From Candidatus Abyssobacteria bacterium SURF_5 (lineage in GTDB: Bacteria > Abyssobacteria > SURF-5), in assembly GCA_003598085.1 (NCBI GenBank), contig QZKU01000127.1, forward strand, positions 24,334 to 88,333: DNA of 64,000 bases. Direction: 5' to 3'. The position numbers were made by a program, and so were the translations under genes. Every line of letters begins with the position of its first letter. The stretch's first letter is position 1. Shown in pieces: positions 1,150 to 40,922 of this stretch. A model generated the notes under the pieces. It did not search any database and had not been told where the DNA came from. It saw nothing but the letters and a program-made list of their open reading frames with translations.

Positions 1150-4100
1150 TCAGGCATCAGGAGATGATTGGCTGGAGATTTGCTTCTGCCATTCGAGGAA
1201 GGTGTTAACATATCGTTCGAGTTCGGAATGTTGCGCGTCGGGTCCTGATTCGGGAATGACGGGATCGATGATATCGACGGCGCCGAGAAAGACTTCCCCG
1301 GAGTAGCCGTCAATACTGATGATGTCGCCGGGTCCCAGTTCGAGCGAGTCAATCCGCAGAAGTTGCGCCTCCTTGTCTATCCGCAGCATCTCGCAGCCTG
1401 TAATACAGGCCTTTGCCATTCGGCGAGAATTGATCGCTGCATGTGAAGTCATGCCGCCTTCCCTCGTCAGGACACCGCAGGCCGCGGAAATGCCGCCGAT
1501 GTCGTTGGGAGTAGTGCGATCCGCCACCAGGATGAGATGCTCTCCTGAATGAGCCCGCTTGACGGCGTCTCTCGAAGTAAAGGCGAGACATCCTGTGGCC
1601 ACCCCCGGCGAGGCCGGATTCCCTTTTGCAACAATCCGCTTCGGGGCGCTGGGGTCAAAAACCGGGAGGAACAACTGCCAGAGGCCGGCCTCCTCAAGTC
1701 TGGCGACTGCCGTCGGGACATCTATCACGCCTTCGGACACGAGGTCAACCGCTATTTTCAGTGCGGCATGGTCCGTGCGTTTTGCGCGACGGGTCTGCAG
1801 GAGGAAGAGGTTCCCGTCTTCGACGGTAAATTCGATATCTTGCATGTCGCGCAGATGGAGCTCGAGCTTTTGGGCTGCGTCCTCAATTTGCTGATAAATA
1901 ACCGGATCCCATTGTTCCAGTGCCCGCGCCGGATTCGAAGCATCCTGGTACAGGCTCAGCGGCAATGGGGTGCCGGTACCGCTGACTAATATCTCGCCTT
2001 GACAACATGGCAGGTATTCTCCGAAGATGCGGCGTTCGCCCGTAATAGGGTTGCGCGAGAAAACGACACCCGAGCACGACCTCGATCCGCGGTTGCCGAA
2101 CACCATCTGCTGGACTGTTGCCGCCGTTCCTAGATGATGCGGTATATTGAATATCTGCCTGTAGGTGACGGCGCTCTCACTGCGCCAGGAAGAGAAGATC
2201 GCCTTGAGTGAGCTGACAAGCTGTACGCGCGGGTCCTGCGGAAATGCAGCCCCGATTGCCTCCTTGATACGTTCGAGCAGGAATCTCGCTTTTTCCTTCA
2301 TCTCGGCGGCTGACGCGACGCCTTCCCGTCGCGGCTGATCAAACGCCGCAGTGTCTCCGTATCCCATCACGGACGCGGCGAATTTAAAGATGAGCCTGCA
2401 GTAGCATTCATAGGCGAAAACGGGGTTCCCGGAGACCCGGCTCAATCCCTCAACCGTTTCGTCGTTCAGCCCGATGTTTAAGATCGTGTCCATCATCCCC
2501 GGCATCGAGACGCACGAGCCGGCGCGCACGGAAAGCAGCAACGGCCTTTCGGGGTCGCCAAAGATGCACCCGGTAATCTCTTCGAGCTTTGATAGACACT
2601 GGAAGAGCGATTCCCTCGTCTCGGCCCGCAGGATCCTTCCATCTTGAAAGAACGTGTTGCATACGCGCGCCGGGATCACAAATCCGGGCGGCACCCGCAC
2701 GCCCAGCTTCGCCATCTCGGTCAGGTAAGCCCCTTTCTCCCCAAGTATCGGATAATACGCGGCGCCGCCCTCGGCAAAACCGGGCCGGAAAAAATATGCA
2801 AATTTCGACGTGCTGGTCTTGGCGGAAAGAGATTTCAGGTCCTGTTTTATCTTCGTTATTTTCTTGGGCGATATCTCCCTCACCGACGGATGACGCACCC
2901 GCTTCATCAAATGCGCGATTCGGCTGCGGGAGAAGGTTAGCAGCTTGAGCGTCAATTCGGACAGGTGCTGCAGCGTCGTCTCCCGAAACAATCCGTCCAC
3001 AAACGCGCTTGCGGCCTCATCGGCATTCGGTATCTGCCGAAGCCGGAAAATCTCTCGCGTCATGTCGTAATAGATACCCACCATTTTGTCGGTTACTACG
3101 CTTATTTCCGCGTCAATACGCTCGACGATCGAATAGATCGTATAGAAGTTCAACTCGCTTGAATGTTTCAGATCGAGCAGTTGCTGCGAGTCCTTCTCGA
3201 GATCGTCCGTTCCCTGCCCTTTGGCGCGAATGTTAAGCACCATCGAGTGGATAATATCGATCGTCAGCGGAAGCGCTTCTATCGTGATCTCAGCCAGCTT
3301 CATGTTGCAGATTTCTCCAAACAGAATGTAGCCGATGCGCTCGAGCGTGAGGTCCAGCCAGATCGCCTCGAGCGTCACCGGCAGCGTCTGCGACTGGAGG
3401 AACGGGTCCTTGATCTTGCTCCTCAACAGCATTCGGATGTTGCCGAGCATGATGGCCGCCCGGAGCGAATCACCGGCGCGCAAACGCTTGATGAATTCCT
3501 CCAGCGGGTCGACCAGTGAAGGGAAAAATAGGGTAACTGCGTCACGCCGCCACGCATCGATCACCTGAACAATGTCGTCGGGGTTTCTCTTCTCGGCTCT
3601 CTCAAGCGTTGCCTTCAAATTGATGAACAGCCTGCGATAGTTGCGGTTCTCCGCCCTCTCGATGTTCTCCTGCACCATTTGCAGCAGGATCTCGAGGTTC
3701 GTCTGGATCAGCGATTCATTACCCTTCTCGATGCTTCCCATGAGATATCGAAGATAGCTGTTCACCTGCGGCGACACTATCTCCGAGATATTGCTCATGA
3801 ACTGGTAAATGTCGGTTATCCTGTCGTCGATGCTGCCCGGATGCGGCTCGAAAACATTCGCCAACTCGCGCTCGAGCTCTTGCAGGAGCTTCAGGATGCC
3901 CGCGAATTTTTCCGGCTGGTACTGGAATACTTTCTGATATTTGTTTATCTTCCGGAGCCCCTCCGACTCGCCGGTCTGCGCGTAATCGATCAAGGCGCGA
4001 ACGAGGTCGAGATTGCGGGGAGAGAGCTTGTTATGGATTTCCGCCCTGATGTCCTCCGTGATCGGGCACGGGAAGGAGTATTCGATTTCTTCGGCGAGTC

Positions 4101-4464
4101 CTCGTATCGTTCGAATTTCGTCCTGGGACGCTCCGAAAAACGGAAGGCTTTTGACCAACTGCCGGACCAACAGGTACATCTCGTCGGAAGACAGGTCGAT
4201 CGTCATCAATGCCTCGACCTTTCCGCGCATCTGCTTGGAGAGAGCAACGCTATCGGCTCGCTCGGCAAAACCGCCGCCGCGATATCCGGGCAGGCTCCCG
4301 GTTTCCACGCGCAGATTTACAGTCAATAACTTGATCAGTTCCGTATTGACCTGAGGATTTGAGACGATGTTGTCGATGCACTCGAAAACCTGGTCCCATG
4401 TCTTGATCGGCACGAGCCTGGATGCGTCCGTCCTCGCAGGCTCCGTTCTTTCCAGCCCCTGCAT
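1150..4464 (-). CDS. PPDK/PEP-synthase-like dikinase with long helical N-terminus and no C-terminal PEP-binding barrel
   Basis: The protein is about 1104 aa. Residues 1-550 are largely helical and not recognised. From about residue 558 there is a PPDK-type ATP-grasp nucleotide-binding domain (GEKGAYLTEMAKLGVRVPPG, SVRAGSCVSMPGMMDTILN, FSRNPITGE). A swivelling phosphohistidine domain follows with the motif GGMTSHAA, giving catalytic His about 1008. The protein ends about 60 residues after that domain at a SIDGYSGEVFLG-like segment. Ordinary PPDK continues for roughly 350 residues with a PEP/pyruvate TIM barrel, which is missing here. The start ATG 4464 lies four bases after the stop of the upstream GAPDH-PGK fusion; a longer frame from 4521 would overlap that gene by 53 bp and is less likely. 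It is probably co-transcribed with the fusion. The phosphoryl acceptor is unknown and could be bound by the N-terminal region. Confidence 0.85.
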   Translation of the reverse strand: MQGLERTEPARTDASRLVPIKTWDQVFECIDNIVSNPQVNTELIKLLTVNLRVETGSLPGYRGGGFAERADSVALSKQMRGKVEALMTIDLSSDEMYLLVRQLVKSLPFFGASQDEIRTIRGLAEEIEYSFPCPITEDIRAEIHNKLSPRNLDLVRALIDYAQTGESEGLRKINKYQKVFQYQPEKFAGILKLLQELERELANVFEPHPGSIDDRITDIYQFMSNISEIVSPQVNSYLRYLMGSIEKGNESLIQTNLEILLQMVQENIERAENRNYRRLFINLKATLERAEKRNPDDIVQVIDAWRRDAVTLFFPSLVDPLEEFIKRLRAGDSLRAAIMLGNIRMLLRSKIKDPFLQSQTLPVTLEAIWLDLTLERIGYILFGEICNMKLAEITIEALPLTIDIIHSMVLNIRAKGQGTDDLEKDSQQLLDLKHSSELNFYTIYSIVERIDAEISVVTDKMVGIYYDMTREIFRLRQIPNADEAASAFVDGLFRETTLQHLSELTLKLLTFSRSRIAHLMKRVRHPSVREISPKKITKIKQDLKSLSAKTSTSKFAYFFRPGFAEGGAAYYPILGEKGAYLTEMAKLGVRVPPGFVIPARVCNTFFQDGRILRAETRESLFQCLSKLEEITGCIFGDPERPLLLSVRAGSCVSMPGMMDTILNIGLNDETVEGLSRVSGNPVFAYECYCRLIFKFAASVMGYGDTAAFDQPRREGVASAAEMKEKARFLLERIKEAIGAAFPQDPRVQLVSSLKAIFSSWRSESAVTYRQIFNIPHHLGTAATVQQMVFGNRGSRSCSGVVFSRNPITGERRIFGEYLPCCQGEILVSGTGTPLPLSLYQDASNPARALEQWDPVIYQQIEDAAQKLELHLRDMQDIEFTVEDGNLFLLQTRRAKRTDHAALKIAVDLVSEGVIDVPTAVARLEEAGLWQLFLPVFDPSAPKRIVAKGNPASPGVATGCLAFTSRDAVKRAHSGEHLILVADRTTPNDIGGISAACGVLTREGGMTSHAAINSRRMAKACITGCEMLRIDKEAQLLRIDSLELGPGDIISIDGYSGEVFLGAVDIIDPVIPESGPDAQHSELERYVNTFLEWQKQISSQSSPDA

Positions 4465-4468
4465 TTTC

Positions 4469-7400
4469 CTATTCTCGTTTATTATCGAGTCCGTCAAAAG
4501 CGGAAAGCGACTGTGTCGCAAGATACTTCAGGGCGGCGCCGCCGCCGGTGCACAAATCAAACGTTTTCTCGGCTTCCTGGATTCCGCCCATGCGGCGATT
4601 GACTGCGGCAACTCCGTCACCGCCCACCACAAGCTTCAGCTCGGCGCCGCAGTCGGCAATCGTGCGGACAAGCCAGTCGTTACCGGCGGAAAATTGTTCG
4701 ACTTCATATAGGCCTACGGTCCCGTTCAGGATGACGGTCGCCGCGCCTTCCAGTATCCCCTTGATGTCGTCACCTGTTCGCGTTTGCGCATGATTGTATT
4801 CGGGCAAGATATCGTACACGTATGCGCCAAACGGGATCTCATCTGCGCAGGCCGTTTTTGACGGCACCCTCTTTTTTGGCCTGAACTTGTCGGGAACCGC
4901 CAGGCCGATGTGCAGGTCCGCCGCGATCTTCACCTCGACGTCGAATTCGGCTGCAAGTTCAAGCAATCGATGGGCCGCTGAAACTTGAGATTCAACATCA
5001 AGGGGGTCGTATCCGGAAACGGAATTGCCCGACGGGAACCCGGAGGCAACAAGGAATGCCGGAGCTGCGGTGAAAAGGCGCTGGATCGATCCGTGACGTA
5101 TCATCATTTCAACCGCGGGAATCTTCTCCGCCATTTTCATTCCGCTCACGAAGGCGGCAACCGGCTTTTTCGGGCTTTTCAGAATTTCATCGAGAAGGGA
5201 AAGCTCCTTTGCCGGAAGCAGGCCCATCACCTTGTATCCTCCGATAAGGTTCATGAGCGGCAGGAAAGACGCATGCAGCCCCCGATGTGAAGCCCCGAAG
5301 GCGCTGTTGACGTAGCTGACGCTCCGTTGCGCCGACGAGTCGAGGTGGCCGAAAAGCGTGTCGAAGAGCGCCTTCGCGAAATGCCGGCTCCCGGATTCCT
5401 CGCCATCATAGAAACGCAGGTTCTCGAGATACAGCACCTGCCCGGGCTTAAGCTCGCGCGAGAGCTTCGCGGTCTCCGCATCAATGAGACCCGAGGCCAT
5501 ACGAAAATCTTTCCCGGCATTCAGCGCCTTCCGCCGCTCGAGTATCTCCGCAAATCTTTCGCCGGCTATCTTCAGGCTGAAGGGTTCGAGCACCTGCCCG
5601 TCTTCGGATTGGAGAAATTGAAAATCCTTCTTCCTCCCGTTATGCGAAAGCACGATGACCCGCGCGTTGTTCCGGATGAGGTACTCAACGTCCGCGGCGC
5701 TCGCCATTATGCGGTGGTCGTCGCTTATGAAAGGTCGCACCTTGTTTGTGTCGGGATCGTAAAGTGGATCGACAACATTATGGTCGACTCTGATGAGCCA
5801 GTAGACTCCGTCAAAGGCCCGAGGCGGAAGATCGAGTACCGAGAGCTTGCCCTCGTACGGCCGTCTGTACGCCGTCAATCGCTCTGAAACGCCTGCAAAT
5901 CCCGCTCCCTCCCCGGCCGAAAGAAATTTCTTCTCCGCCGGCAGCATGATTTCCTCGAGGAATTCGACGTACATTTTCGAGGGACGCCATTCGTTCTCGT
6001 ACCACCCGATGAGTTGGATGATCGTCATTGGTTCGCCGGTTGGCGAGGTGAAGTGAGCAATCTCGATGCTATCCTTGCAGAGAGTCGCTCCAGCTTGCGC
6101 CAGTTCGCGCAGCAGCCTGATCTGGGTCGATCGGTCGATGTTCCTGGTCCTGAGAAACTGGAACCGCGTTTCCGCCCCGGCGCGGCATGCCTGTTCGAGC
6201 GAGGCGGCGGCGGCGTCAATGTGTTCCATCGTGTAATGGCCGCGCAACACATACGTCGGCGCCATTATCGACACTGTCTCGATCGGAAATCGAATGGAAT
6301 ATACGGGTGTATGCGAGACGCCGGCCGCATCGACGAGCGCGGTGCTGGCGCTTGCGCCTGAACTTGTTTCGAAAATGTTTCCCGTTGCGTCGGTTCCGCG
6401 GCGGATGTCTTTCCTGTACTCGATCGGATCGATGATATCCGGACCGATATGCTCGCCAGTGAGGGAATGATAGGTCGGGCCTATTCCCTCCAGCACCATC
6501 TTGGCGGCCTCATCAAAGAACTTCTCCCAGTCCATCTCCGCGTGTTTGCTCCGATACATTGCCAGTTCCACCAGCCGATTCAGGTTTGCAAGGCATCCTG
6601 TCGTGCACGAAGCAGGAGACAGAAAAAAGTGCGTGGCGGAATCGTATTTATGATCATTGATATGCCTGATGAAAGTCGCCTCGCGCCACTCGTCCTCCTT
6701 GCTCGAGCCGGGCGCGGTTATCATCGTACGGAGCGCCCCGGCGCGCCTGTGGCGGTTGACTCCGTCTACATTATTGAAGCGGCCGGTGGCGTCTATGGCC
6801 ACATGAATCGGAACACCTGCGAAAAGGAAACATTTCCAGGGATAATTGCCGGGGTCTCTGAACACAGGATGGCTGAACACCAGCATTCTGCGTCCGTCAA
6901 GTTCAATCCAGTCGACGCCGAAATCGACAGTGCCGGGAAAACGTCCCTGGACGTAGTCCTTCTCATTCAGCAGCTCGGCCAGGCGCCGAGCATCCGGTCC
7001 GCCGAGTGCGACCACGCGCAGTTTTTCACTTTTTGCGGCCAGTCGAAGCGTGCAGCTCCCCATGCGGCCGCCCGGCCCATTAATGACGATGTTATAGGTT
7101 TCAGGAGACGACGGGTGAATAATTGAATTTGGCCGGCTTATCGTCTGCCAGCGTTGCCGACTTTTATCGTACTGGTCGACGGAAACAAACGTCACTCGCT
7201 CAAACAGCTCTTTCTTGTCGTTGTAGTCGAGATGGTGAACCCGCAATGTGGCGCGAAGCTTGTCGCCGTGCTCGTAGACATCGTGAATGAGAATCTCCCA
7301 ATCGTATTCGCGGCTAAGATCGAGCGCATATCTGCGAAGCTGCGAATAATATCGTCCCATCACCTGGTGAATATTTTCGAGGGAAGCGGTCGTTAGTAGC

Positions 7401-9721
7401 GGCGTGGAGTATACTTTGTGCCGATTCTCGTGGAGGGCTACAATCGCCACCGCTTCCCCCGTTTCATCCCGAAGTACTTCCTGACGAACGACCGGCTGCG
7501 ACTCGAGGAACAACAGGCGCATCGCGTCATTCGCCAGAGTTGAATCCAGAATTGTGATATGACCGCTGCCCGGTTGAGCTGTCGAGTATTTTCGGGCGCG
7601 CCGCTTGGTCGCGACCGCCTCCGACTTCTGCGAGTATTTCTGCGCCAGGCGTGAAACGTGGCGCCGCGAAAATTCCGCCTGCTGGACCACGTCCAGCGAA
7701 TCCCAGCAGCGACACGGCAGCGGCATTCCGGCCGCAAATTGGTCCGCCGCCTTCATGTATTCCCGCTGGACTGGAAATCCCGCAATCGAGCGGAGAGCCA
7801 TATCGACGTCGGCCGCCGCTTCATCCACAAAGAACGCAATGCTCACCTGCGCGCCCGCGTCATTGTGGCTTACGTACACCTGGTTGGGATCAAAGATCAG
7901 CTTTGGGTTCCCGAAATTGAGATTCGATGTCAGTTGCACCCACCATTCCGGCAATTCAAGAATATCCAGTTCCTGTGCCTTGCTCCGAAAACGTGAGATG
8001 ATTTTCTCCCGCGATACCTTCGAATCGAGAACCGCATTTATGCGGAGGAGCTTGCCGCGCGGAATATTTGTCTTGAATTCATTTGTCGCCAGAACAATGG
8101 CAGACTCGTCAATTGCACCAACGAGCAAGGCCAGATTGCCGAATCGCGCCGGGTTCTTCTTGTGGATCACCTGATAAACGCCCGCAACGCGATACGTCGG
8201 TTGGACCACCGCAGGATCATCATGCTTCTCGACGATATCGGCTCCGACAACCAGAATTCTGCCTAACTCCGACAGAGTGGAGACGCCCAGCGCATATGCT
8301 ATGCCTTCGGATGGGGCCGCGCCCAACATGCTTCCAATGGAAGAGTCGTCCTTGATGATCCGATGAGCGGCAACATCATGATCCGCTTCAGCCCTGGCCG
8401 CGACAACTTCAACACCGGATTGCCGCAGCCGGTCACGCACGTCGGCGGTAAGCCGGCCGGCCTGGCTCTCGCCGAGCATCACACAGGTAACGCCAAATGC
8501 TTGCCAGGAAACGTTCGTCAGGGCTGCAGACGGCTCCGCCAACCAGCCGTGATAGACGGCGGCGGCGGATTTCTGACATCCGAGATACAGGAAGCCACAT
8601 TCATCCGCCCGAACGCTTTCAAAAACGCCCAACTGCGAATTGTATTTGATCCATTGCATGATATCCCGCGGCTTCTGGCCCAGAAAAACGACCACCTCCA
8701 GATTCTCAGCATACTCAGTCGTGATCTTGCGAAGTGCCGCAATGACATTCTGGTCATACCCGACGACGCCGATTCTGCGGGGCGCGGCGCCGGGAGAAAC
8801 GTGCGCCAGAACGCGCGAGCGCACCGCGGCAAGGATGCCGCGATCATGTATGGGCGATTGACCGTCTGCCATCCCGAACACATCGAAAAGTTTCTCGATG
8901 CCGGGAACCAGCTTCGTCAACTTCTCCCTTGCGGCGCCGCTCTCTTGACTTCGGCTCAACTGCTCGATGAGCCTGTCCACTTCCCGGATTTCCGCCAAGC
9001 CGGCCACCCGCATCCCTCGCTTTTCAAGGAGCATGCGCATGGATGCAAATGGCCGTTCGTTGGTCTCTTCGAGAACATATGCTTCGGCGGGAATTTCCGG
9101 AATGCGCCTCTCAATTCGCTTATGAAATGAGCTGAGCAAATGCTCGCGGCTCATTGCGTCAAAAACGAATGAAGCGGCCTCCGAGAGGATGCCATCCGGG
9201 AGATGTCGATATAACCGCCTCTGGTAGTCCTCGCAGAATTCCGCAAAGAGGTGATATATGCCATCTTCGCCCGAATCGAAATCCTGACCGTACTCGGCTT
9301 TGAATTTTTTACCGAATTCTCCGGCCTCGATCTTTTGCCGCGAAAGAAACTCCTGAAATGCCGCATCGAACAGGGGAAACAAATGCAGCCGGCGGCACAT
9401 CCATTCGATGCCTTCGTGAAAAAGCGTCCGGTTGAATACTTCAACCCGCCTGTGCCTGAAACTCTGATACACGCCCTCGGATCGGCCGCTCAACCACTCC
9501 AGAAAAGCGTAAGCGTCCACCACATCGAAAAAGATGACTCCTTTGCCGTCGCGCACCTCCGCCAGAGGGTATTTCTCAAGTGCCGGGAGGAGATCGATCT
9601 CCTCAAGCGCCCCCTCAAGCGGAACGGCTTTCGCGAACAAGGAGCGGATATGGGACAAGGAGGGCCTGTGCGCGCAGTCTCTCACGGTTCGAGGAAAGGA
9701 ACCATGCATTGGCATTTTCAT
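4469..9721 (-). CDS. Giant fusion: N-terminal region with GAPDH-like segment + GAPDH + phosphoglycerate kinase (1750 aa)
   Basis: This is one uninterrupted 1750-codon frame. Residues 1-300 are an unrecognised helical region. Residues about 314-650 look like a degenerate GAPDH fold (Rossmann start RRIGVVGYDQNVIAAL, then IKYNSQLGVFE matching the GAPDH KYDSxHGxF region) with no catalytic Cys motif. Residues about 875-1260 form a second, more canonical GAPDH: INGPGGRMG dinucleotide loop, SPASCTTGCLANL with catalytic Cys 1039, and GWYENEW near its end. Residues about 1290-1740 are phosphoglycerate kinase: LIRVDHNVVDP, VIVLSHNGRKK, YLENLRFYDGEE, FGASHRGLHASF, VVGGDGVAAVN and CTGGGAALKYLA. The product would carry both steps between glyceraldehyde-3-phosphate and 3-phosphoglycerate and so could channel 1,3-bisphosphoglycerate. 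AAGGG lies just before ATG 9721; ATG 9715 (third codon) has better spacing. The domain calls for GAPDH and PGK are firm; the N-terminal GAPDH-like call is inference. Confidence 0.88.
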   Translation of the reverse strand: MKMPMHGSFPRTVRDCAHRPSLSHIRSLFAKAVPLEGALEEIDLLPALEKYPLAEVRDGKGVIFFDVVDAYAFLEWLSGRSEGVYQSFRHRRVEVFNRTLFHEGIEWMCRRLHLFPLFDAAFQEFLSRQKIEAGEFGKKFKAEYGQDFDSGEDGIYHLFAEFCEDYQRRLYRHLPDGILSEAASFVFDAMSREHLLSSFHKRIERRIPEIPAEAYVLEETNERPFASMRMLLEKRGMRVAGLAEIREVDRLIEQLSRSQESGAAREKLTKLVPGIEKLFDVFGMADGQSPIHDRGILAAVRSRVLAHVSPGAAPRRIGVVGYDQNVIAALRKITTEYAENLEVVVFLGQKPRDIMQWIKYNSQLGVFESVRADECGFLYLGCQKSAAAVYHGWLAEPSAALTNVSWQAFGVTCVMLGESQAGRLTADVRDRLRQSGVEVVAARAEADHDVAAHRIIKDDSSIGSMLGAAPSEGIAYALGVSTLSELGRILVVGADIVEKHDDPAVVQPTYRVAGVYQVIHKKNPARFGNLALLVGAIDESAIVLATNEFKTNIPRGKLLRINAVLDSKVSREKIISRFRSKAQELDILELPEWWVQLTSNLNFGNPKLIFDPNQVYVSHNDAGAQVSIAFFVDEAAADVDMALRSIAGFPVQREYMKAADQFAAGMPLPCRCWDSLDVVQQAEFSRRHVSRLAQKYSQKSEAVATKRRARKYSTAQPGSGHITILDSTLANDAMRLLFLESQPVVRQEVLRDETGEAVAIVALHENRHKVYSTPLLTTASLENIHQVMGRYYSQLRRYALDLSREYDWEILIHDVYEHGDKLRATLRVHHLDYNDKKELFERVTFVSVDQYDKSRQRWQTISRPNSIIHPSSPETYNIVINGPGGRMGSCTLRLAAKSEKLRVVALGGPDARRLAELLNEKDYVQGRFPGTVDFGVDWIELDGRRMLVFSHPVFRDPGNYPWKCFLFAGVPIHVAIDATGRFNNVDGVNRHRRAGALRTMITAPGSSKEDEWREATFIRHINDHKYDSATHFFLSPASCTTGCLANLNRLVELAMYRSKHAEMDWEKFFDEAAKMVLEGIGPTYHSLTGEHIGPDIIDPIEYRKDIRRGTDATGNIFETSSGASASTALVDAAGVSHTPVYSIRFPIETVSIMAPTYVLRGHYTMEHIDAAAASLEQACRAGAETRFQFLRTRNIDRSTQIRLLRELAQAGATLCKDSIEIAHFTSPTGEPMTIIQLIGWYENEWRPSKMYVEFLEEIMLPAEKKFLSAGEGAGFAGVSERLTAYRRPYEGKLSVLDLPPRAFDGVYWLIRVDHNVVDPLYDPDTNKVRPFISDDHRIMASAADVEYLIRNNARVIVLSHNGRKKDFQFLQSEDGQVLEPFSLKIAGERFAEILERRKALNAGKDFRMASGLIDAETAKLSRELKPGQVLYLENLRFYDGEESGSRHFAKALFDTLFGHLDSSAQRSVSYVNSAFGASHRGLHASFLPLMNLIGGYKVMGLLPAKELSLLDEILKSPKKPVAAFVSGMKMAEKIPAVEMMIRHGSIQRLFTAAPAFLVASGFPSGNSVSGYDPLDVESQVSAAHRLLELAAEFDVEVKIAADLHIGLAVPDKFRPKKRVPSKTACADEIPFGAYVYDILPEYNHAQTRTGDDIKGILEGAATVILNGTVGLYEVEQFSAGNDWLVRTIADCGAELKLVVGGDGVAAVNRRMGGIQEAEKTFDLCTGGGAALKYLATQSLSAFDGLDNKRE

Positions 9722-10344: not shown

Positions 10345-10752
10345 TCATGACAACAAAGGCTCGCCCTCTCTCTTCACCTTGGCCTGTTTCTTGTAGAAGG
10401 CATCCTTTACCTTGAGATGCATCTCCTCGATCGAAATGGGCTTCATCAAATAGCCGGAAGCGCCAAGCTTCAACCCCTCGACTTCCGATTCAACCGAAAC
10501 ATGTCCGGTAAGCAGAATGACCTCGATATCGGGATGCTCCTCCTTGATTTTTCGGAGCGCTTCGATTCCGTCGATTCCCGGCATTTTGACGTCGAGCAGC
10601 ACGACGTCGATGGGGGATTCTTTCAGGATCCTCAAGGCATCCAGTCCATTCGTGCAGGTGGACGTGCTGATTCCCCGCTTTTCCAGCAGCTTGCGGTACG
10701 TAGCCAGAAAGCGTTCCTCGTCGTCAACGATCAAGAGGTTAATGGCGCCCAT
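10345..10752 (-). CDS. Single-domain response regulator (REC only)
   Basis: A 135-aa receiver domain with LLIVDDEE, phospho-acceptor Asp in VVLLDVKMPGIDG, VILLTGH and LMKPIS, followed by a charged tail (KKQAKVKRE). It overlaps the 3' end of the upstream histidine kinase gene by 22 bp, so the two are translationally coupled and this is the likely cognate partner. It has no effector domain. Confidence 0.93.
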   Translation of the reverse strand: MGAINLLIVDDEERFLATYRKLLEKRGISTSTCTNGLDALRILKESPIDVVLLDVKMPGIDGIEALRKIKEEHPDIEVILLTGHVSVESEVEGLKLGASGYLMKPISIEEMHLKVKDAFYKKQAKVKREGEPLLS

Positions 10753-12473
10753 TTCGGCGACTCTCCTTGCAATGTTTTCGTTCCTTTTTCGTCTCTTTCG
10801 GGCGGACCGGCAAGCGGAAGCCGGACGGTGAACACCGTGCCCACATTCAGTTCACTGCTTACCATGATCTGCCCGCCCAACCGTTCAATAATTCCATAAC
10901 AGGTGCTCAGCCCGAGGCCGGTGCCTTGCCCAACCGGTTTTGTCGTAAAGAATGGGAGAAAAATTTTTTCCATGTGTTCCGCGGGAATGCCGGTGCCGTT
11001 GTCGGTGACCGCGATTGACATCTCGTCATCGGCAGACGAAGCCGTTATGCGGATTTCTCCTCCGCGCTTGGGCTTCAACGCATCGATCGCATTATTGAGC
11101 AAGTTCAGAAACACCTGTTGCAGTTGAAGCTGATCGCTCAGGATGACCGGCAGAGATGCCTCATACTCCTGAACGATACGAATATTCTCAACCTGAGCCC
11201 GCCGCTCGATCATGCCCACCACATCCGATATCAGAGACCGGATGTCAAACGTGTCGATCTTGGTCTCGGTCTTGCGCGCGAATCCCAGCAGACCTTCGGT
11301 GATGAGTTTTCCCCGCTCCACCTGCAGTGCGATCTGGTCGATCGATTCGCGGAGCAGCCTCAGATTCTCAGCGTCCACAATTCCGCCGTTCCGCTCCGCC
11401 TCCAACAGGATGTCTTTGATGTAAGCTTCTTCTCCTTTGATCACCTGGAGCGGGTTGTTCATCTCGTGAGCGACGCCTGCGCTCATCTCGCCGACTTCCG
11501 CCAGTTTGCCTGCCATGATCAACTGGGTGCCCATCCTGCGCTTTTCCATGTCAGCCATGGCCAACTGGTTCGCGACGCCCGAGGCGAGCATGAACGCCAT
11601 GAATACCGCCAATCCGCCGCCGGCAATGATCATGATAATAGCGATAACCACCGCCCGAATGAGTGGGGCGTAGGCGTCATTCAGCCCCTGCCTGACGATC
11701 AGGAACCAGTCCATCGGCTCTATTTTTCCGGCCGCGTATATGTGGCTTTCATCTTTATAATCGACCGCGGTAAAAGCGAAGATTGTTCTTTGGTCGAAAC
11801 GGTAGATCGAATGATCCGGGTCCACCTCCAGCAGTTCGCCCCCCGACCGGCGACGGGTTTGGAAGACGCCTTCCTCATTGACAATGTACGCCTCGCCGGT
11901 CTTGCCAACGCGCACGTTTTCCACAAGGTCATTGAAGTAAAACCAGTCGATCGTCGTCCGCAGATACCACGTCCGGCTGCCCTCATCGCGGCGGACGGCA
12001 ATAATGAAATGCGGCACATTTCTATACCCGAGAAACTGGTCGGATATATAAACGTCTTTCTGCTGCACCTGAAGGAACCATGGCGCCTGCGCATACTTCC
12101 TGCCTTCAAGTTCGAACGGCCCGACATATGCCACATGGTCCCCATTCTCATTGAACAAACCAATATCGAAAAAGGCGCGCGATCTCATCTGGAGCTGCTC
12201 AAAGATCGTCGCCAGATGCTCTTTATTGCTCAATTCGTCGAAACTATTGGAGGCGGCCACATACTGAAGATCAAAACAACGCTCGCGCAGGAAACCTTCA
12301 ATCATGTTGCGGTGCGCGTCGGCCACCCGAAGCAATTGCGTCTCCACCTGCGAGCGCAGGTTCGTGGCAAAATAGTAGACCAGCGTGCAGAAAACCAAGG
12401 CAAGCGTGACGAACGGCACAAGCAATACCCGTCTCAAAATGATCCGCCGGATATTCTTGAATTCACCAGCCAT
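10731..12473 (-). CDS. Membrane sensor histidine kinase with periplasmic CACHE-like domain
   Basis: The kinase is about 580 aa. TM1 (residues about 10-32, RRVLLVPFVTLALVFCTLVYYF) is followed by a roughly 250-residue extracytoplasmic sensor of double-CACHE type (AFFDIGLFNENGDHVAYVGP, RTTIDWFYFNDLVENV, GKTGEAYIVNEEGVFQ), then TM2 (VVIAIIMIIAGGGLAVFMAFML). The HisKA H-box is GVAHEMNNPLQVI, the N-box LLNNAIDALKP, and the G-boxes VTDNGTGIP and GTGLGLSTCYGI. I place the start at ATG 12473 rather than 12542. It has GGGAG eight bases upstream, and a sigma-54 promoter at 12562-12575 would put the transcript start near 12550, too close to 12542 for a leader. It heads the operon that continues into two RECs and probably the GAPDH-PGK fusion. 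Confidence 0.92.
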   Translation of the reverse strand: MAGEFKNIRRIILRRVLLVPFVTLALVFCTLVYYFATNLRSQVETQLLRVADAHRNMIEGFLRERCFDLQYVAASNSFDELSNKEHLATIFEQLQMRSRAFFDIGLFNENGDHVAYVGPFELEGRKYAQAPWFLQVQQKDVYISDQFLGYRNVPHFIIAVRRDEGSRTWYLRTTIDWFYFNDLVENVRVGKTGEAYIVNEEGVFQTRRRSGGELLEVDPDHSIYRFDQRTIFAFTAVDYKDESHIYAAGKIEPMDWFLIVRQGLNDAYAPLIRAVVIAIIMIIAGGGLAVFMAFMLASGVANQLAMADMEKRRMGTQLIMAGKLAEVGEMSAGVAHEMNNPLQVIKGEEAYIKDILLEAERNGGIVDAENLRLLRESIDQIALQVERGKLITEGLLGFARKTETKIDTFDIRSLISDVVGMIERRAQVENIRIVQEYEASLPVILSDQLQLQQVFLNLLNNAIDALKPKRGGEIRITASSADDEMSIAVTDNGTGIPAEHMEKIFLPFFTTKPVGQGTGLGLSTCYGIIERLGGQIMVSSELNVGTVFTVRLPLAGPPERDEKGTKTLQGESPKWAPLTS

Positions 12474-12561
12474 TAACCGAACTCCCGCGTCTTGCCCGTC
12501 GGTTCGCCCGAAATTCCTGTGATCAAAAGCATGGTTCAACATCCTCTAAGAAAACTGATGA

Positions 12562-12810: not shown

Positions 12811-14703
12811 CTAATCGAAATCCAGATCAAAGGTATAGATACCTTCGCTGAGCGTGCTTCTCATCTTCAGGCCGCTCTTTTGCAGCAATGACTGCGCCGG
12901 TTTGTTTTCTCGCAGAACCTCGGCCGTAAATCCGCTTATCCCGTTGCGCCGCGCGATCGTTACCAGATACTTCAGCAGGAAACTCCCGATTCCACGCTTC
13001 TGCCAGCTATCGCGGACAAGCAGCGCGATTTCCGCCTTGTTGGTGCGTGGGTCCAGATAGTATCGGCCGATAGCGATGATTTCATCGCCGTGCGCCTCGG
13101 GGACCGTCCCCACGAGCGAAACATCGTTTCGACGGTTGATGTACGCGAAATCCTGCATCTGCCGCTGCGGGATGCGCTTCATATGGGACATGTAACGGTA
13201 GTACATCGCCTGCTGAGAAACCGCGTAAAACAAGTCCCTGATTCGCGGCTCGTCAGTCGGGTGTATCGGACGGAAGTTGATCTGAGTTCCGTCATCCAAC
13301 AGCAGCGAGGTGCGCAAATCCTGGGGACCCAGCAGGAGCTTGCCGTCGGTATCACCCAACTCGCCCGCCAGCTCCGGACGGATATACTTCGCCTTTACCG
13401 CCTCCTGGAGCAGCTTTGCGCGAAAATCGGGATGCGAAATGCTGATCAGCGCAAGAGCGCGATCCTGAACGCTTTTCCCGTGAAGATATGCGATCCCGTA
13501 TTCCGTCACGACGTAATGGACATCGCCCCGCGTTGTAACAACTCCCGCGCCCGCGCTCAAGTGAGTGACAATCCTTGAAACTTTGCCTTCCTGCGCCGTT
13601 GAAGGAAGCGCGATAATCGCTTTCCCGCCGGGCGCCCTGGCGGCGCCTCGATTGAAGTCGACCTGCCCGCCGATCCCGGAGAAAAACTTGGTGCCCAGCG
13701 AATCCGAACAGACCTGGCCGGTCAGGTCAACCTCGAGCGCAACATTGATGGCCACCATCTTATGCTGCTGCCCGATGACAAAAACATCATTCACATATTC
13801 GGTCGGGTGAAATGAGAAGAAGGGATTGTTGTCGATGTAGTCATAAAGCTTCCGGCTCCCCATGCAGAAGCTGGCAACAATTTTCCCGCGGTCTATCGAC
13901 TTGCGTTTGCCCGTGACCGCGCCCGCCTCGATAAGATCGATCAAGGCGTCGGAGAACATCTCCGTATGAATTCCCAAATCCCTCTTCTCTCTGAGAAACT
14001 CGAGCACCGCCTGCGGAATCCGTCCGATCCCGAATTCGACCGTCGAGCCGTCCTCGATCAGAGCGGCGACGTATTCGCCGATCCTGCGCGTGACCTCGGT
14101 CGGCTGCGCCTGCGTGATCTCGTACAGCGGCTCGTCGACCGGCACCAGAATATCAAGATCATTAATATGAATAAAGCTGTCTCCCAGCGTCCGCGGCATT
14201 TGCGGGTTCACCTGCGCAATCACCAGAGCGGCGTTCTCGGCCGCGCTCTTCACGATGTCAACCGATATCCCCAGACTGCAGAGTCCCAGACGATCCGGCG
14301 GCGTCACCTGAATAAGCGCGGAATCAAGCGGCAATTGCCCCGATTTGAAAAGCTTCGGAATGTCGGAAAGGAATATCGGCGTGTAATCGCCCAGACCCTC
14401 CTGAATGATATTGCGCACGTTCTCGGCAATGAAGAAACTGTTCACCCGGAAATGCTCCGCCAGTTCTTTGTGCGCGTAGGGCGCTTCGCCAAAGGTGAGC
14501 AGGTGCACTATTTCCGTGTCGGCAAGCTCATTCGACCGGGCCGTCAGCGCGCGAACAAGCTCCTGCGGCGTCGCACAGCCCGTCCCGATAAACACTCGGT
14601 GACCGGGCATTATTTCAGCCACCGCTTCCTCGGCGGTGGCGATCATCGACCGGTACTTCTCCCGCCAATCAGGATCAAATACATATTTCCGTTGTTCCGT
14701 CAT
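12811..14703 (-). CDS. Acetyl-CoA hydrolase/CoA-transferase fused to a C-terminal GNAT acetyltransferase domain
   Basis: The protein is 630 aa. Residues about 1-450 are a class-I CoA-transferase of the acetyl-CoA hydrolase/4-hydroxybutyrate CoA-transferase family (GHRVFIGTGCATPQELVRAL, IQVTPPDRLGLCSLGISVD, VEFGIGRIPQAVL, SGIGGQVDFNRGA, YVVTEYGIAYLHGKS). Residues about 465-630 are a GNAT N-acetyltransferase (acetyl-CoA loop in DSWQKRGIGSFLLKYL, ending AQSLLQKSGL). The ATG overlaps the stop of the upstream ADP-forming acyl-CoA synthetase by four bases, so the pair is translationally coupled. The transferase half should move CoA between acetyl-CoA and another acid. The GNAT half may acetylate an acyl-CoA enzyme lysine, as in Pat/AcuA-type control of Acs, but this is inference. 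Confidence 0.9.
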   Translation of the reverse strand: MTEQRKYVFDPDWREKYRSMIATAEEAVAEIMPGHRVFIGTGCATPQELVRALTARSNELADTEIVHLLTFGEAPYAHKELAEHFRVNSFFIAENVRNIIQEGLGDYTPIFLSDIPKLFKSGQLPLDSALIQVTPPDRLGLCSLGISVDIVKSAAENAALVIAQVNPQMPRTLGDSFIHINDLDILVPVDEPLYEITQAQPTEVTRRIGEYVAALIEDGSTVEFGIGRIPQAVLEFLREKRDLGIHTEMFSDALIDLIEAGAVTGKRKSIDRGKIVASFCMGSRKLYDYIDNNPFFSFHPTEYVNDVFVIGQQHKMVAINVALEVDLTGQVCSDSLGTKFFSGIGGQVDFNRGAARAPGGKAIIALPSTAQEGKVSRIVTHLSAGAGVVTTRGDVHYVVTEYGIAYLHGKSVQDRALALISISHPDFRAKLLQEAVKAKYIRPELAGELGDTDGKLLLGPQDLRTSLLLDDGTQINFRPIHPTDEPRIRDLFYAVSQQAMYYRYMSHMKRIPQRQMQDFAYINRRNDVSLVGTVPEAHGDEIIAIGRYYLDPRTNKAEIALLVRDSWQKRGIGSFLLKYLVTIARRNGISGFTAEVLRENKPAQSLLQKSGLKMRSTLSEGIYTFDLDFD

Positions 14704-16805
14704 TGCCGAGCCTCTCTTTTCGATAAGATGATGCGCGCATCAGCAACAATGGGCTCAGTCCCGATCTCCCCGACGATCAGCGGGCTGATATCGAGCTCCT
14801 GTATCTGCGGGAAATCCGTCACCAGTTGACTTATCCGCTGAAGCCCGTTGGCGATGGCGCCCAGGTCTACGCCGGGCTGACCGCGCGTTCCTGTCAATAA
14901 CGCATACGACCGGCTTTCCGACAGCATCTGCATCGCCTCCTGAGCCGTTATCGGAGCGAGATGAAACGAGACGTCTTTCATCACCTCCACAAAGATGCCG
15001 CCGAGCCCGAACATCAGCATGGGGCCGAACTGAGGGTCGCGATTCATTCCAAGGATTACTTCGCGGCCGGGAGGACACATCTTCTCGACGTAAACGCCCT
15101 CGAGCTCCACATCGGGCATTCGCTCGCGCACGCGCAGCAACATCAGGTCGCACGCATCGCGAACGTCTTCGGGGTTCGATAGCCGCAGCTTGATCCCGCC
15201 GATATCGGATTTGTGCACGATGTGGGGCGACACGATCTTCAATGCAACGGGATAGCCCATCCGATTCGCTATCTCAACAGCTTCACTCGCGCTCATCACC
15301 ATGTGCCCTTCGGGAACGGTAAATCCATATGCCCGCAGAATCTCTTTTGTCTTCACCTCTCCCACGTACGTGCGGCCGGCTCGCAGCTGACGCGCAATAA
15401 TCCGCTCCACCCGGCGCCGGTGAACCGGGAAACGCGTCACCACGCGAGGAGGACGCCGCCTCCAGGACGCATACTCGCAGAGCGCGCGAAGCGCGGCGAC
15501 CGCGCGCTCAGGAGAAGGATAGTCCGGCAAATTCGAATTGAGCATCTCGCTCCGACCCGGCAGCTGCGCATCACTGCCGATAAAAGCAGCCAGAACGGGT
15601 TTATTCCCGCGGATGCACCCGGCAACGACGCGCGCCGTTTCGGAACAATTCGTCATAACCTTCGGCGTCAGGATGATAATGACCGCGTCAACCGCTTCAT
15701 TATCCAATGCGGCGTTCACCGCATCCTCATACCGATCGCAATCAGCGTCTCCCAAAACATCTATGGGATTATCCGCGGTCACCGAATAAGGAGCCTTCCC
15801 GCGCAATGCGGTGGAAGAACCCCGTTGCGGAGAGGCCAGCGACAGGCCGCAATGCTCGACGGCGTCGGCCGCCAGAATGCCCGGGCCGTATGCATTACTG
15901 ATAATTGCTATTCGATCACCTTTCGGGAGCGGCTGAGTGGCAAACGCGGCCGCATAATCAAGCAGTTTTTCAAAGCTGTCCGCCCGGATCACGCCCGAAC
16001 GGTTAAACGCTGCGCCATATGCGATATCCGATCCGGCCAGACTGCCCGTGTGCGAGGAAGCGGCCTTCATTCCCGCGCGTGTAGTCCCTGCTTTCAGGAT
16101 GACGACGGGCTTCATTGACGCAGCCGTCTCCGCCACTTTCACAAATTCATCGCCGGAACTGATGCTCTCAAGATATCCCACAATCACCCGGGTCTGCTCG
16201 TCCTCGGAGAATGCTTGAAGAAAATCGATTTCCGTCAGGTCCGCCCTGTTCCCGATCCCGACCATCTTCGCCAGCCCGAGATGGCTTCTCGATGCCCAAT
16301 CCATTATGGCCGTGCACACTGCGCCGGATTGAGAGATAACCGATATCCCGCCTTCGTGAGGAAAATGGGGAATGATCGAAGCGTTCAGAGAGTTGCCCGT
16401 ATTGATCAGGCCGGGACAGTTCGGCCCCAGAAGACGCACTTTTTTGGCGGCGCATATCTGCGCAATCCGGCTTTCAATCTCGGCGCCTTCAGGCGAGGCT
16501 TCTCGAAAACCGGCGGTTATCAGCGCTATCGCTTTGGCGCCCGCAAAAATCGCATCTTCAACCGCGGCCAGCACCGCGGGAACCGGAATTGCTATGACTG
16601 CAAGGTCTATGGGTATGCCGCACGTCCTGAGATTCTCACAGCACTTTATGCCCCGCACCCGATCGGCAAGCGGATTTACCGGCACGATGTTTCCCGCGTA
16701 ACCGCAGTCGATCAGGTTCGCCAAAATGTCGTGACCGACTTTGCCGGGACTGCGCGAGGCGCCGATTACGGCAACGCTCTTGGGATACAGCAACGGTTCC
16801 AGCAT
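14700..16805 (-). CDS. ADP-forming acetate/acyl-CoA synthetase, fused alpha-beta form (copy 1)
   Basis: The protein is about 701 aa. It has a CoA-binding domain (LLYPKSVAVIGASRSPGKVG), a succinyl-CoA-ligase-like region (GPNCPGLINTG, VISQSGAVCTAIMDW), the conserved phospho-His segment SSHTGSLAGSD, and a C-terminal ATP-grasp beta part (ILRAYGFTVPEGHMV, ALKIVSPHIVHKSDIGG, MFGLGGIFVEVMKDVSF). The family makes ATP from acyl-CoA, ADP and phosphate, or activates the acid in reverse. The frame opens upstream at 16883, but homology begins at ATG 16805 (MLEPLLYPKS), which I take as the start although its ribosome-binding site is weak. The 194-bp gap upstream holds no clear promoter. Confidence 0.9.
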   Translation of the reverse strand: MLEPLLYPKSVAVIGASRSPGKVGHDILANLIDCGYAGNIVPVNPLADRVRGIKCCENLRTCGIPIDLAVIAIPVPAVLAAVEDAIFAGAKAIALITAGFREASPEGAEIESRIAQICAAKKVRLLGPNCPGLINTGNSLNASIIPHFPHEGGISVISQSGAVCTAIMDWASRSHLGLAKMVGIGNRADLTEIDFLQAFSEDEQTRVIVGYLESISSGDEFVKVAETAASMKPVVILKAGTTRAGMKAASSHTGSLAGSDIAYGAAFNRSGVIRADSFEKLLDYAAAFATQPLPKGDRIAIISNAYGPGILAADAVEHCGLSLASPQRGSSTALRGKAPYSVTADNPIDVLGDADCDRYEDAVNAALDNEAVDAVIIILTPKVMTNCSETARVVAGCIRGNKPVLAAFIGSDAQLPGRSEMLNSNLPDYPSPERAVAALRALCEYASWRRRPPRVVTRFPVHRRRVERIIARQLRAGRTYVGEVKTKEILRAYGFTVPEGHMVMSASEAVEIANRMGYPVALKIVSPHIVHKSDIGGIKLRLSNPEDVRDACDLMLLRVRERMPDVELEGVYVEKMCPPGREVILGMNRDPQFGPMLMFGLGGIFVEVMKDVSFHLAPITAQEAMQMLSESRSYALLTGTRGQPGVDLGAIANGLQRISQLVTDFPQIQELDISPLIVGEIGTEPIVADARIILSKREARQ

Positions 16806-16999
16806 ATTCGTAGAATCTTTGTACCGCGGTTCCCGGGTTTGGCCCAGAAAAAAACCACCTCTTCCCCCTCCGGTGAACCGCAAAAATGTTATTATCCAGC
16901 AGATACAGGCGCTCGCCGAACAACCGCTCGAATTGTCAGCGGGTTCTTTAAGCTAAAAAGAATATATTCCGCCTTCCCACGCATGTCAAGCCAAGGGCA

Positions 17000-18241
17000 T
17001 CACGCCGCCTTCAGACCCGGCGCCACCAGTTGTTCCTCATGCGGCGCTTTCGTTACGAAGGTCAGCGCGGCCGCAACAAGCATCACGAAACCGGCAATCA
17101 CATAGGCCTGGTTAAACGAGCCGGTCGCGTCGAAAATCCTGCCGGATACGATCGGCAAAACGAGCCCGCCGACTCCCCACGCCGTGAAGACCAGGCCGTA
17201 GTTGACGCCGAAATTCTTCAGACCGTAATAGTCTTTTGTCGCCGACGGAAACAGCGACAGGCAGGCTCCGTAGTTGAAGCCGACGACCATCGAATAGGCG
17301 ACCAGCATCGCCAACTGGTCCTGCAGGCGAAGCGTAAACATCAGGACCGCCTGCACCGCAAACACGATGAGCATTGTCGCGGTTCGACCGATCCTGTCCG
17401 AGAGCACCCCGGCAATCACGCGGCCGCCCGCATTGCCCACCGCAAGCAGCGCCACCAGGACGAATCCCGCCGTGGAACCGCTCTGCAGCTCCACGATCTT
17501 CGCCAGCTTCCCGATGATCATCAGACCTGCGCCCGCCCCGCATGCGAACATGAACCAAAGCAAGTAGAACTGCGGAGTCCGCATCATTGACAGCCAATCG
17601 TATTCGTGGACGGGAGCCGCGGGTATTCCCCTATGCACCATCGAAGCCGACGAAGCCGGAACGTATTCCTTGGGCGGATTGCGCAAGAACTGCGCGAGAA
17701 CCACCACGACCAGAAGAAAAGCGATGCCGAAAATCCTCATGGCGACCTGGACGCCGAATGCCGCGATCAGATACCTGGCGAGAGGCGCCGCATACACTGA
17801 CGCCAGACCGAATCCCGCCACCACAATCCCCGCTATCAGGCCCGTCCGCTCGCGCGGAAACCACTTGACGGCGGGTGGTGTCGCCGAGGCATACCCGAAC
17901 CCGATCCCTGCTCCTGCCAACAAACCAAACCCCAGCACAAATACCGTGAGCGAAGTGCTCGCGCTCGCGAGCAAAAAGCCCAATCCGGTCAAAACACCGC
18001 CCATGGTCGCCACCTTGCGCGGGCCGATCTTATCCTGCATCCGCCCGGCAACCACCATGACAAGAGCGAAAACGATGCATGCAATCGAATAAGGGAGCGC
18101 TCGCTGAGCCTCGTTCCACCCCCATTCCTGCGGAATCGCTTTCGAGATGACACTCCACGTATAAAGAACCCCGAGAGCAAGGTTGATGCCTGTCCCGGAG
18201 AGAGCGACGGTCCATCCATAATTCCTGACGTTCTGATTCAT
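17000..18241 (-). CDS. Major facilitator superfamily transporter, OFA (oxalate/formate antiporter) family
   Basis: The protein is 413 aa with about 12 hydrophobic segments. The start NYGWTVALSGTGINLALGVLYTWSV is typical of OFA-type monocarboxylate transporters, as are the loop VVAGRMQDKIGPRKVATMGG, the motif GAGIGFGYASATPPAVKWFP, and the cytoplasmic loop at about residues 190-215. It lies directly downstream of AMP-forming acetyl-CoA synthetase, so acetate, formate or another short acid is a reasonable substrate guess. The real substrate cannot be read from the sequence. Confidence 0.88.
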   Translation of the reverse strand: MNQNVRNYGWTVALSGTGINLALGVLYTWSVISKAIPQEWGWNEAQRALPYSIACIVFALVMVVAGRMQDKIGPRKVATMGGVLTGLGFLLASASTSLTVFVLGFGLLAGAGIGFGYASATPPAVKWFPRERTGLIAGIVVAGFGLASVYAAPLARYLIAAFGVQVAMRIFGIAFLLVVVVLAQFLRNPPKEYVPASSASMVHRGIPAAPVHEYDWLSMMRTPQFYLLWFMFACGAGAGLMIIGKLAKIVELQSGSTAGFVLVALLAVGNAGGRVIAGVLSDRIGRTATMLIVFAVQAVLMFTLRLQDQLAMLVAYSMVVGFNYGACLSLFPSATKDYYGLKNFGVNYGLVFTAWGVGGLVLPIVSGRIFDATGSFNQAYVIAGFVMLVAAALTFVTKAPHEEQLVAPGLKAA

Positions 18242-18344
18242 GCCATCACCTCAAGACCGGCCCGTCGTCGGCCGGACTGGCGGCAATTGGTCGAATCCGC
18301 TTTCGCAACGGCAACCGCTGATTGCGCCGGTCCGCCACGACAGG

Positions 18345-18361
18345 AAAAAGCCGCTCCGGCT
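18345..18361 (-). terminator. Small candidate intrinsic terminator after acs
   Basis: Read on the minus strand, the acs stop codon runs into AGCCGGAGCGGCT followed by TTTTT: a 5-bp stem with a 3-nt loop and a T-run. The stem is short, so termination may be partial and leave read-through into the transporter gene. Confidence 0.4.
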
Positions 18362-25514: not shown

Positions 25515-25542
25515 ATGGCGATATCGATAAAGGAGATCAGGA

Positions 25543-27270: not shown

Positions 27271-27291
27271 GCTTCACAAAGGAGGGTACGC

Positions 27292-27699: not shown

Positions 27700-27813
27700 G
27701 AACGACTGCGCTCAGAGTCCGTGGGCGGATCTAAAAACCGTTTCCGACCGCGAACGCTTGGCACGAACTCTTTCGCTTCTCGAGGACAGCCTCCTGTAGA
27801 GGAGGCGAAACCT

Positions 27814-28477: not shown

Positions 28478-28485
28478 GTCCCCCA

Positions 28486-31892: not shown

Positions 31893-31934
31893 TTCGATAA
31901 CGCCTACGCCTTCCTCTTAGGCGGGTCACAGGGC

Positions 31935-31977: not shown

Positions 31978-32015
31978 AGCCGGCTCGAGAACAGCATGAG
32001 CTGAAAAGGAAAACC

Positions 32016-40861: not shown

Positions 40862-40922
40862 GTTCGCCTCCGCTTCCGTTCGCATACAGGAGCGAATACC
40901 GGCACTCGTACGGGCAATTTCC

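What the first reader, a model, noticed from the sequence alone, without database searches (positions are those of the whole stretch)
4469..9721. GAPDH-like + GAPDH + phosphoglycerate kinase in one 1750-aa chain
The catalytic Cys motif of GAPDH (SPASCTTGC) and a complete set of PGK motifs occur in one uninterrupted frame, after an N-terminal 870 residues that include a second, apparently degenerate GAPDH-like segment. Fusing consecutive glycolytic enzymes suggests channelling of 1,3-bisphosphoglycerate. I know of other glycolytic fusions (for example TPI-GAPDH and PGK-TPI) but not this arrangement. Both enzymatic parts are divergent, so the reaction may be altered or regulatory.
Basis: partly seen in the sequence, partly recalled or inferred. 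Interest (0 to 1): 0.85.

Follow-up and report, generated by a model that had tools for sequence, protein, structure and literature searches.

The report
Fused GAPDH-PGK with built-in pseudo-GAPDH
In an uncultured subsurface bacterium, two successive sugar-metabolism enzymes (GAPDH and PGK) are joined in one giant, conserved protein together with a dead copy of the first enzyme, next to a truncated relative of another enzyme of the same pathway; it looks like a natural test case for handing an unstable intermediate from one active site to the next.

Summary
One intact 1750-aa frame (4469-9721, minus strand) carries a degenerate GAPDH-like segment (about 316-620), a catalytic GAPDH domain (874-1262) and a complete PGK domain (1291-1750). 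The same protein (1783 aa, 66% identical) lies in Ca. Abyssobacteria SURF_17, a different genus, under strong purifying selection, so it is not an assembly join. The GAPDH domain is 83% identical between the two species, more than their ordinary gap (79%). Active-site residues are kept: GAPDH Cys1039, His1085, Arg1144; all 3-phosphoglycerate ligands of PGK. The changes sit mainly in the two nucleotide pockets. The genome also has ordinary gap, pgk and PPDK. No relative of the N-terminal 870 aa was found outside this family in 386 sampled genomes. I found no published natural GAPDH-PGK fusion. Most likely it is a bifunctional 3-phosphoglycerate/glyceraldehyde-3-phosphate enzyme with a pseudo-GAPDH as built-in partner. 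Channelling, direction, cofactor and the role of the PPDK half are inferred, not shown.

The parts
4469..9721 (-). 1750-aa fusion gene (pseudo-GAPDH + GAPDH + PGK)
   Evidence: intact ORF; orthologue of 1783 aa in SURF_17, 66% identical
8852..9721 (-). residues 1-290, unknown domain, probably helical
   Evidence: no Pfam, NCBIfam or PDB match; 47% identical to SURF_17; helices only in a low-confidence model
7862..8776 (-). residues ~316-620, degenerate GAPDH unit without conserved Cys and without the GxGxxG motif
   Evidence: hhalign with permutation and real-protein controls; 12 of 61 near-invariant GAPDH residues kept
7103..7756 (-). residues 656-873, unknown domain, 70% conserved
   Evidence: no family match; identity
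5936..7102 (-). residues 874-1262, GAPDH catalytic domain: Cys1039, His1085, Thr1088, Arg1107, Arg1144, Asn1243 kept; GPGGRMG loop and Asp32-to-Gly
   Evidence: 83% identical to SURF_17
5852..5935 (-). residues 1263-1290, unconserved linker (27% identity)
4472..5851 (-). residues 1291-1750, PGK domain: all 3-phosphoglycerate ligands and both catalytic lysines kept; nucleotide pocket changed
1150..4464 (-). PPDK-half gene: ~570-aa all-helical domain + ATP-grasp and phospho-His domains, no PEP/pyruvate barrel; ATG 4 nt after the fusion's stop (longest ORF from TTG at 4521)
   Evidence: conserved in all three genomes of the family

Best explanation
A catalytically competent bifunctional enzyme. 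The PGK domain phosphorylates 3-phosphoglycerate and the neighbouring GAPDH domain reduces the 1,3-bisphosphoglycerate to glyceraldehyde 3-phosphate (or the reverse), with the labile acyl phosphate passed on inside the particle. The N-terminal dead GAPDH unit most likely packs against the live one as a built-in partner, replacing subunits of the usual GAPDH tetramer and perhaps serving as a regulatory site. The coenzyme is probably NADP(H) or both, and the direction assimilatory. The closely linked PPDK-half protein is probably its partner or regulator. Shown: domains, residues, purifying selection, gene pair. Inferred: activity, channelling, pseudo-dimer, coenzyme, direction, partnership.
For: Catalytic and phosphate-site residues of GAPDH (S148, C149, T150, H176, T179, R231, N313 in standard numbering) are kept, 37 of 61 near-invariant columns in all. 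PGK keeps 50 of 66, with R1311, D1313, N1315, R1337, H1360, R1363, R1436, R1480, K1529, K1533, E1673 and TGGG1725-1728 (ligand roles from PMC7729029). The GAPDH domain is more conserved than ordinary gap between the same two species, 83% against 79%: the mark of a working enzyme. N31-D32 has become G907-G908; changes at D32 and 187-188 let NAD-GAPDHs use NADP (PMC9145139). The pseudo-GAPDH is homologous over nearly its whole length. Enzyme families of three gluconeogenic steps (PPDK, PGK, GAPDH) meet in the two genes, and Acs, acyl-CoA synthetase and CoA-transferase genes lie upstream on the same strand in this genome.
Against: No assay. No usable structure model of the N-terminal half. The PGK nucleotide pocket has lost the GGG loop (3-residue deletion), the NGPxG proline and the first glycine of GGGD, so ATP use may be altered. 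Ordinary gap, pgk and PPDK are present, so a housekeeping role is not needed. The acetate-gene neighbourhood could not be confirmed in relatives: the SURF_17 contig ends just upstream, and the histidine kinase-regulator pair lies elsewhere in both relatives. G001 keeps the PPDK half without a detectable fusion gene, so the pairing is not obligatory, or that assembly is incomplete.
Confidence: 0.45

Rival explanations
1. Altered carboxylate reductase: kinase plus acyl-phosphate reductase working on another phosphorylated acid, in the manner of P5CS (glutamate kinase fused to glutamyl-phosphate reductase), with new specificity after the ancient divergence.
For: Both domains sit on very long branches outside the ordinary enzymes sampled (GAPDH 3.9 + 2.1, PGK 2.1 + 1.2 changes per site); the S-loop of GAPDH has a 5-residue insertion and R196 is lost; the ordinary enzymes are also present.
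Against: Every named 3-phosphoglycerate ligand of PGK and the phosphate-site residues of GAPDH are kept.
Confidence: 0.2
2. Regulatory protein: the domains bind triose phosphates and nucleotides as a sensor that controls the ordinary enzymes or the PPDK-half kinase, with little turnover.
For: Dead GAPDH unit; changed nucleotide pockets in both catalytic domains; a sensor kinase and two receiver proteins directly upstream in this genome; inactive multidomain PGK-like proteins are known from kinetoplastids (PMC7729029).
Against: Catalytic Cys, His and Lys kept and the GAPDH domain more conserved than the ordinary enzyme; the kinase-regulator pair is not with the fusion in relatives.
Confidence: 0.17
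3. An extra ordinary glycolytic isozyme whose fusion has no special role.
For: Glycolytic fusions occur sporadically (TPI-GAPDH, PGK-TIM).
Against: A dead GAPDH unit and two unknown domains are kept by selection (47-70% identity, dN far below dS); divergence too deep for a recent duplicate.
Confidence: 0.12
4. The phosphohistidine swivel of the PPDK-half docks on the PGK-like domain and phosphorylates 3-phosphoglycerate in place of ATP, making the pair a dikinase for 1,3-bisphosphoglycerate driven by ATP to AMP + PPi.
For: The PPDK half keeps its ATP-grasp and His motifs but has no acceptor barrel, and the genome has no stand-alone barrel; genes 4 nt apart; the PGK nucleotide pocket is what has changed.
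Against: PGK still keeps Lys, Asp and TGGG residues that hold the ATP phosphates; G001 has the PPDK half without the fusion; no precedent known to me.
Confidence: 0.06

Closest known systems
PGK-TIM fusion of Thermotoga (PMC7729029; NF010569)
   Same: PGK in a bifunctional glycolytic polypeptide, with an ordinary PGK also made
   Different: the partner is TIM, which does not act next to PGK; here the partner is GAPDH placed in front, plus ~870 extra residues
TPI-GAPDH fusion of stramenopiles (PMC3527533)
   Same: GAPDH fused to the enzyme of an adjacent step
   Different: eukaryotic, mitochondrial, other partner, no pseudo-GAPDH
GAPDH-enolase transcriptional fusion of dinoflagellates (cited in PMC3527533)
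   Same: GAPDH joined to another glycolytic enzyme
   Different: non-adjacent step, eukaryotic
P5CS (glutamate kinase-glutamyl-phosphate reductase; own knowledge)
   Same: kinase and acyl-phosphate reductase in one chain around a labile acyl phosphate
   Different: unrelated folds, other substrate, reverse domain order
Multidomain and inactive PGK-like proteins of kinetoplastids (PMC7729029)
   Same: PGK fused to extra domains alongside ordinary PGKs
   Different: no GAPDH; some have lost substrate residues, kept here
Pyruvate phosphate dikinase (downstream gene)
   Same: ATP-grasp and phospho-His domains with their motifs
   Different: no PEP/pyruvate barrel; ~570-aa helical domain in front

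Membership tests
Type-I GAPDH (residues 874-1262) | Pfam NAD-binding domain above cut-off | tested here: met
   41.5 bits against 31.7
Type-I GAPDH (residues 874-1262) | Pfam C-terminal domain above cut-off | tested here: not met
   17.0 against 24.4 bits
Type-I GAPDH (residues 874-1262) | NCBIfam equivalog score (TIGR01534) | tested here: not met
   111.6 against 367.2 bits: related by homology, not filed as an equivalog
Type-I GAPDH (residues 874-1262) | catalytic Cys149, His176 and phosphate-site residues | tested here: met
   C1039, H1085, S1038, T1040, T1088, R1144
Type-I GAPDH (residues 874-1262) | NGFGRIG coenzyme loop and Asp32 | tested here: not met
   NGPGGRMG; N31-D32 replaced by G907-G908
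Type-I GAPDH (residues 316-620) | sequence homology to GAPDH | tested here: met
   score 45.6 against at most 26.5 in controls
Type-I GAPDH (residues 316-620) | catalytic Cys and coenzyme motif | tested here: not met
   no Cys conserved between the two orthologues
Type-I GAPDH (residues 316-620) | GAPDH fold | tested here: inconclusive
   model of pLDDT 35
Phosphoglycerate kinase (residues 1291-1750) | Pfam PGK above cut-off | tested here: met
   183.9 against 27 bits
Phosphoglycerate kinase (residues 1291-1750) | 3-phosphoglycerate ligands (D23, N25, H62, R65, R122, R170) and catalytic lysines | tested here: met
   roles of the ligands in PMC7729029
Phosphoglycerate kinase (residues 1291-1750) | nucleotide-binding motifs GGxK, GGGMA, NGPxG, GGGD | tested here: not met
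   SGxK, 3-residue deletion, NGTVG, VGGD
Phosphoglycerate kinase (residues 1291-1750) | kinase activity | not testable with these tools
   needs an assay
PGK-TIM or TPI-GAPDH fusion | TIM domain in the chain | tested here: not met
   no TIM match; the NF010569 match covers only its PGK part
Pyruvate phosphate dikinase (downstream gene) | ATP-grasp and phospho-His motifs | tested here: met
   alignment with the genome's complete PPDK, GGMTSHAA present
Pyruvate phosphate dikinase (downstream gene) | PEP/pyruvate-binding barrel | tested here: not met
   match stops at 514 of 865; barrel absent in alignment

The most novel reading that the evidence does not exclude
The two genes form one machine in which the PPDK-half's phosphohistidine, charged from ATP with release of AMP and PPi, supplies the phosphoryl group for 3-phosphoglycerate in the PGK-like domain, and the GAPDH domain reduces the bound 1,3-bisphosphoglycerate at once: an irreversible 'dikinase' route from 3-phosphoglycerate to triose phosphate.
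Probability: 0.05. Interest if true: 0.92.

Novelty: new variant of a known kind. Interest (0 to 1): 0.62.

Why it matters
Whether 1,3-bisphosphoglycerate passes directly between GAPDH and PGK is an old question about separate enzymes. A natural covalent GAPDH-PGK with conserved active sites would let it be tested on one defined molecule. The protein also carries a dead GAPDH unit held by selection inside the same chain, a possible natural case of a pseudoenzyme acting as built-in subunit, and it is coupled to a PPDK relative without its substrate barrel, so the acceptor of that phosphohistidine is an open question.

Tried and rejected
(1) Assembly artefact: rejected, an independent orthologue in another genus is in one frame over the same length. 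(2) Plain GAPDH-PGK fusions in other phyla: one search listed several 730-800-aa open frames holding both matches; on reading, those examined are adjacent separate gap and pgk genes, and every match over both genes outside the family has stops inside. (3) AlphaFold2 of residues 1-876: pLDDT 35, unusable; no fold search was run on it. (4) Fold of the PPDK-like N-terminus: helical, pLDDT 61, no PDB match at E 0.001 or better. (5) Dead and live GAPDH units as a recent tandem copy: no direct profile similarity between them, so an old duplication or separate origin. (6) Shared domain between the fusion's N-terminus and the partner's helical part: none detected. (7) Viral contigs: no relative. (8) Conserved upstream context: HK-RR orthologues lie elsewhere in relatives. 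(9) Two phylum searches at E 1e-60 around top-scoring genomes: nothing. (10) Promoter scan: no sigma-70-like site in the region, uninformative.

Full report
What is there. The frame at 4469-9721 on the minus strand encodes 1750 aa without interruption. Pfam and NCBIfam place a PGK domain at 1308-1735 and a type-I GAPDH domain at about 877-1250, both clearly homologous but divergent: the GAPDH C-terminal Pfam model and the GAPDH equivalog model fall below their cut-offs. PDB sequence searches agree. Residues 1-870 match no family and no solved structure.

Origin. The window lies in a 5.1-Mb draft genome, 98% complete. The only full-length relative found in a scan of genome contigs is Ca. Abyssobacteria SURF_17, which is also the same-family genome G002. 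NCBI puts Ca. Abyssobacteria in Ca. Hydrogenedentota; the lineage was described from the deep subsurface, with Wood-Ljungdahl pathway, glycolysis and TCA genes (PMC6121073).

Real gene. The SURF_17 copy is 1783 aa, 66% identical, in one frame. Identity by part: 1-290 47%, 291-655 62%, 656-873 70%, GAPDH 83%, linker 27%, PGK 68%; synonymous sites are saturated, and nonsynonymous divergence is well below that in every part (0.10-0.45; 0.8 in the short linker). Ordinary gap is 79% and ordinary pgk 73% identical between the same two genomes. The fused GAPDH is thus at least as constrained as the housekeeping enzyme.

The second GAPDH-like segment. Profile comparison of 316-620 (two sequences) with 32 ordinary GAPDHs gives score 45.6 and a colinear alignment to positions 2-300 of 332. 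The best of 300 column permutations is 26.5, and the best of 46 segments of unrelated ORFs is 26.5. Most of the signal comes from the first ~100 residues (score 46.6 alone). The SURF_17 sequence alone scores 47.4, while the window sequence alone is not significant (23.8), so the homology rests on the pair. Only 12 of 61 near-invariant GAPDH residues remain; Cys, His and the coenzyme motif are gone. The fold is untested, because AlphaFold2 failed with two sequences.

Active sites. Of 61 near-invariant GAPDH columns, 37 are kept in both fusion copies, among them S1038-C1039-T1040-T1041, H1085, T1088, R1107, G1122, R1144, Y1241, N1243 and E1244. The NGFGRIG loop is NGPGGRMG, N31-D32 is G907-G908, and the S-loop carries a 5-residue insertion. 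Substitutions at D32 and 187-188 let NAD-GAPDHs use NADP (PMC9145139), so NADP use is a reasonable but untested inference. Of 66 near-invariant PGK columns 50 are kept, including every residue named as a 3-phosphoglycerate ligand in PMC7729029. The losses cluster in the nucleotide domain: GGxK to SGxK, a 3-residue deletion in the GGGMA loop, NGPxG to NGTVG, GGGD to VGGD.

Phylogeny. Each fused domain leaves on a very long, fully supported branch and is not nested among the ordinary Abyssobacteria enzymes. With so few sequences the placement is open; the depth of divergence is clear.

Genome context. Ordinary gap and pgk are adjacent on C55, a second gap lies on C128, and a complete 927-aa PPDK on C104. 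Four bases after the fusion's stop starts the PPDK-half gene: an all-helical N-terminal ~570 aa, then ATP-grasp and phospho-His domains with intact motifs, ending before the PEP/pyruvate barrel. The genome's only barrels belong to a 594-aa protein of PTS enzyme I size on C53 and to the full PPDK. The PPDK-half is in all three genomes of the family (65-68% identical); the fusion is in two. In the third, the PPDK-half lies near a contig end, the ~600 nt upstream code for nothing similar, and no other contig holds the fusion. Upstream of the fusion in this genome, same strand, are two receiver proteins, a dCache histidine kinase, an acetyl-CoA hydrolase/transferase with GNAT domain, an acyl-CoA synthetase (ADP-forming type), an MFS transporter and acetyl-CoA synthetase; this context could not be confirmed in relatives.

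Distribution. The N-terminal 873 aa match only G000 and G002 among 386 genomes, and the partner's N-terminal domain only the three family members among 372. The GAPDH-PGK part finds, outside the family, only adjacent separate genes with stops between. These are samples of public genomes at limited sensitivity; metagenomes were not searched. A survey of archaeal fusions reports fissions in glycolysis and no fusion in the RHP pathway, to which its Fig. 5 assigns Pgk and Gap (PMC11237513). Searches of the open literature found TPI-GAPDH, PGK-TIM and GAPDH-enolase, not GAPDH-PGK. Subscription papers and protein-architecture databases were not searchable, so priority is not certain.

Mechanism. Best supported: a working bifunctional enzyme between 3-phosphoglycerate and glyceraldehyde 3-phosphate, with a pseudo-GAPDH as intramolecular partner. 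Channelling is the natural reason to join two enzymes that share a labile acyl phosphate, but nothing here demonstrates it. The assimilatory direction rests on the coenzyme inference, the PPDK-related partner and the acetate genes upstream, each weak alone. Altered specificity, a regulatory role and a phosphohistidine-driven variant are kept as rivals.

Noticed in passing
window 22416-34302 (+): By reading the ORFs: NuoF-like flavoprotein fused to a GltD-like domain, an [FeFe]-hydrogenase catalytic subunit, a histidine kinase and HydG-, HydF- and HydE-like maturases, an apparently complete hydrogenase cluster.
   Followed up: no
window 12811-20360 (-): Acs, MFS transporter, acyl-CoA synthetase (ADP-forming type) and an acetyl-CoA hydrolase/transferase carrying a GNAT domain in a row, probably for activation of acetate or other short acids; a second such synthetase (43% identical) lies at 34462-36642.
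   Followed up: partly
window 10731-12542 and 10345-10752 (-): dCache histidine kinase and receiver protein are conserved as a pair (about 60% identical) in both relatives, but apart from the fusion gene there.
   Followed up: partly
L044 8114-8716 (relative G001): Upstream of the PPDK-half, about 600 nt without coding similarity, up to the contig end, with repeated segments visible in translation; the fusion gene is absent there.
   Followed up: partly
window 40833-42830 (+): A 665-aa ORF with many CxxCH motifs, probably a multihaem cytochrome c.
   Followed up: no
window 7103-7756 (-), residues 656-873 of the fusion: Unknown ~200-aa domain between the dead and live GAPDH units, slightly more conserved (70%) than the PGK domain (68%); no family match.
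   Followed up: partly
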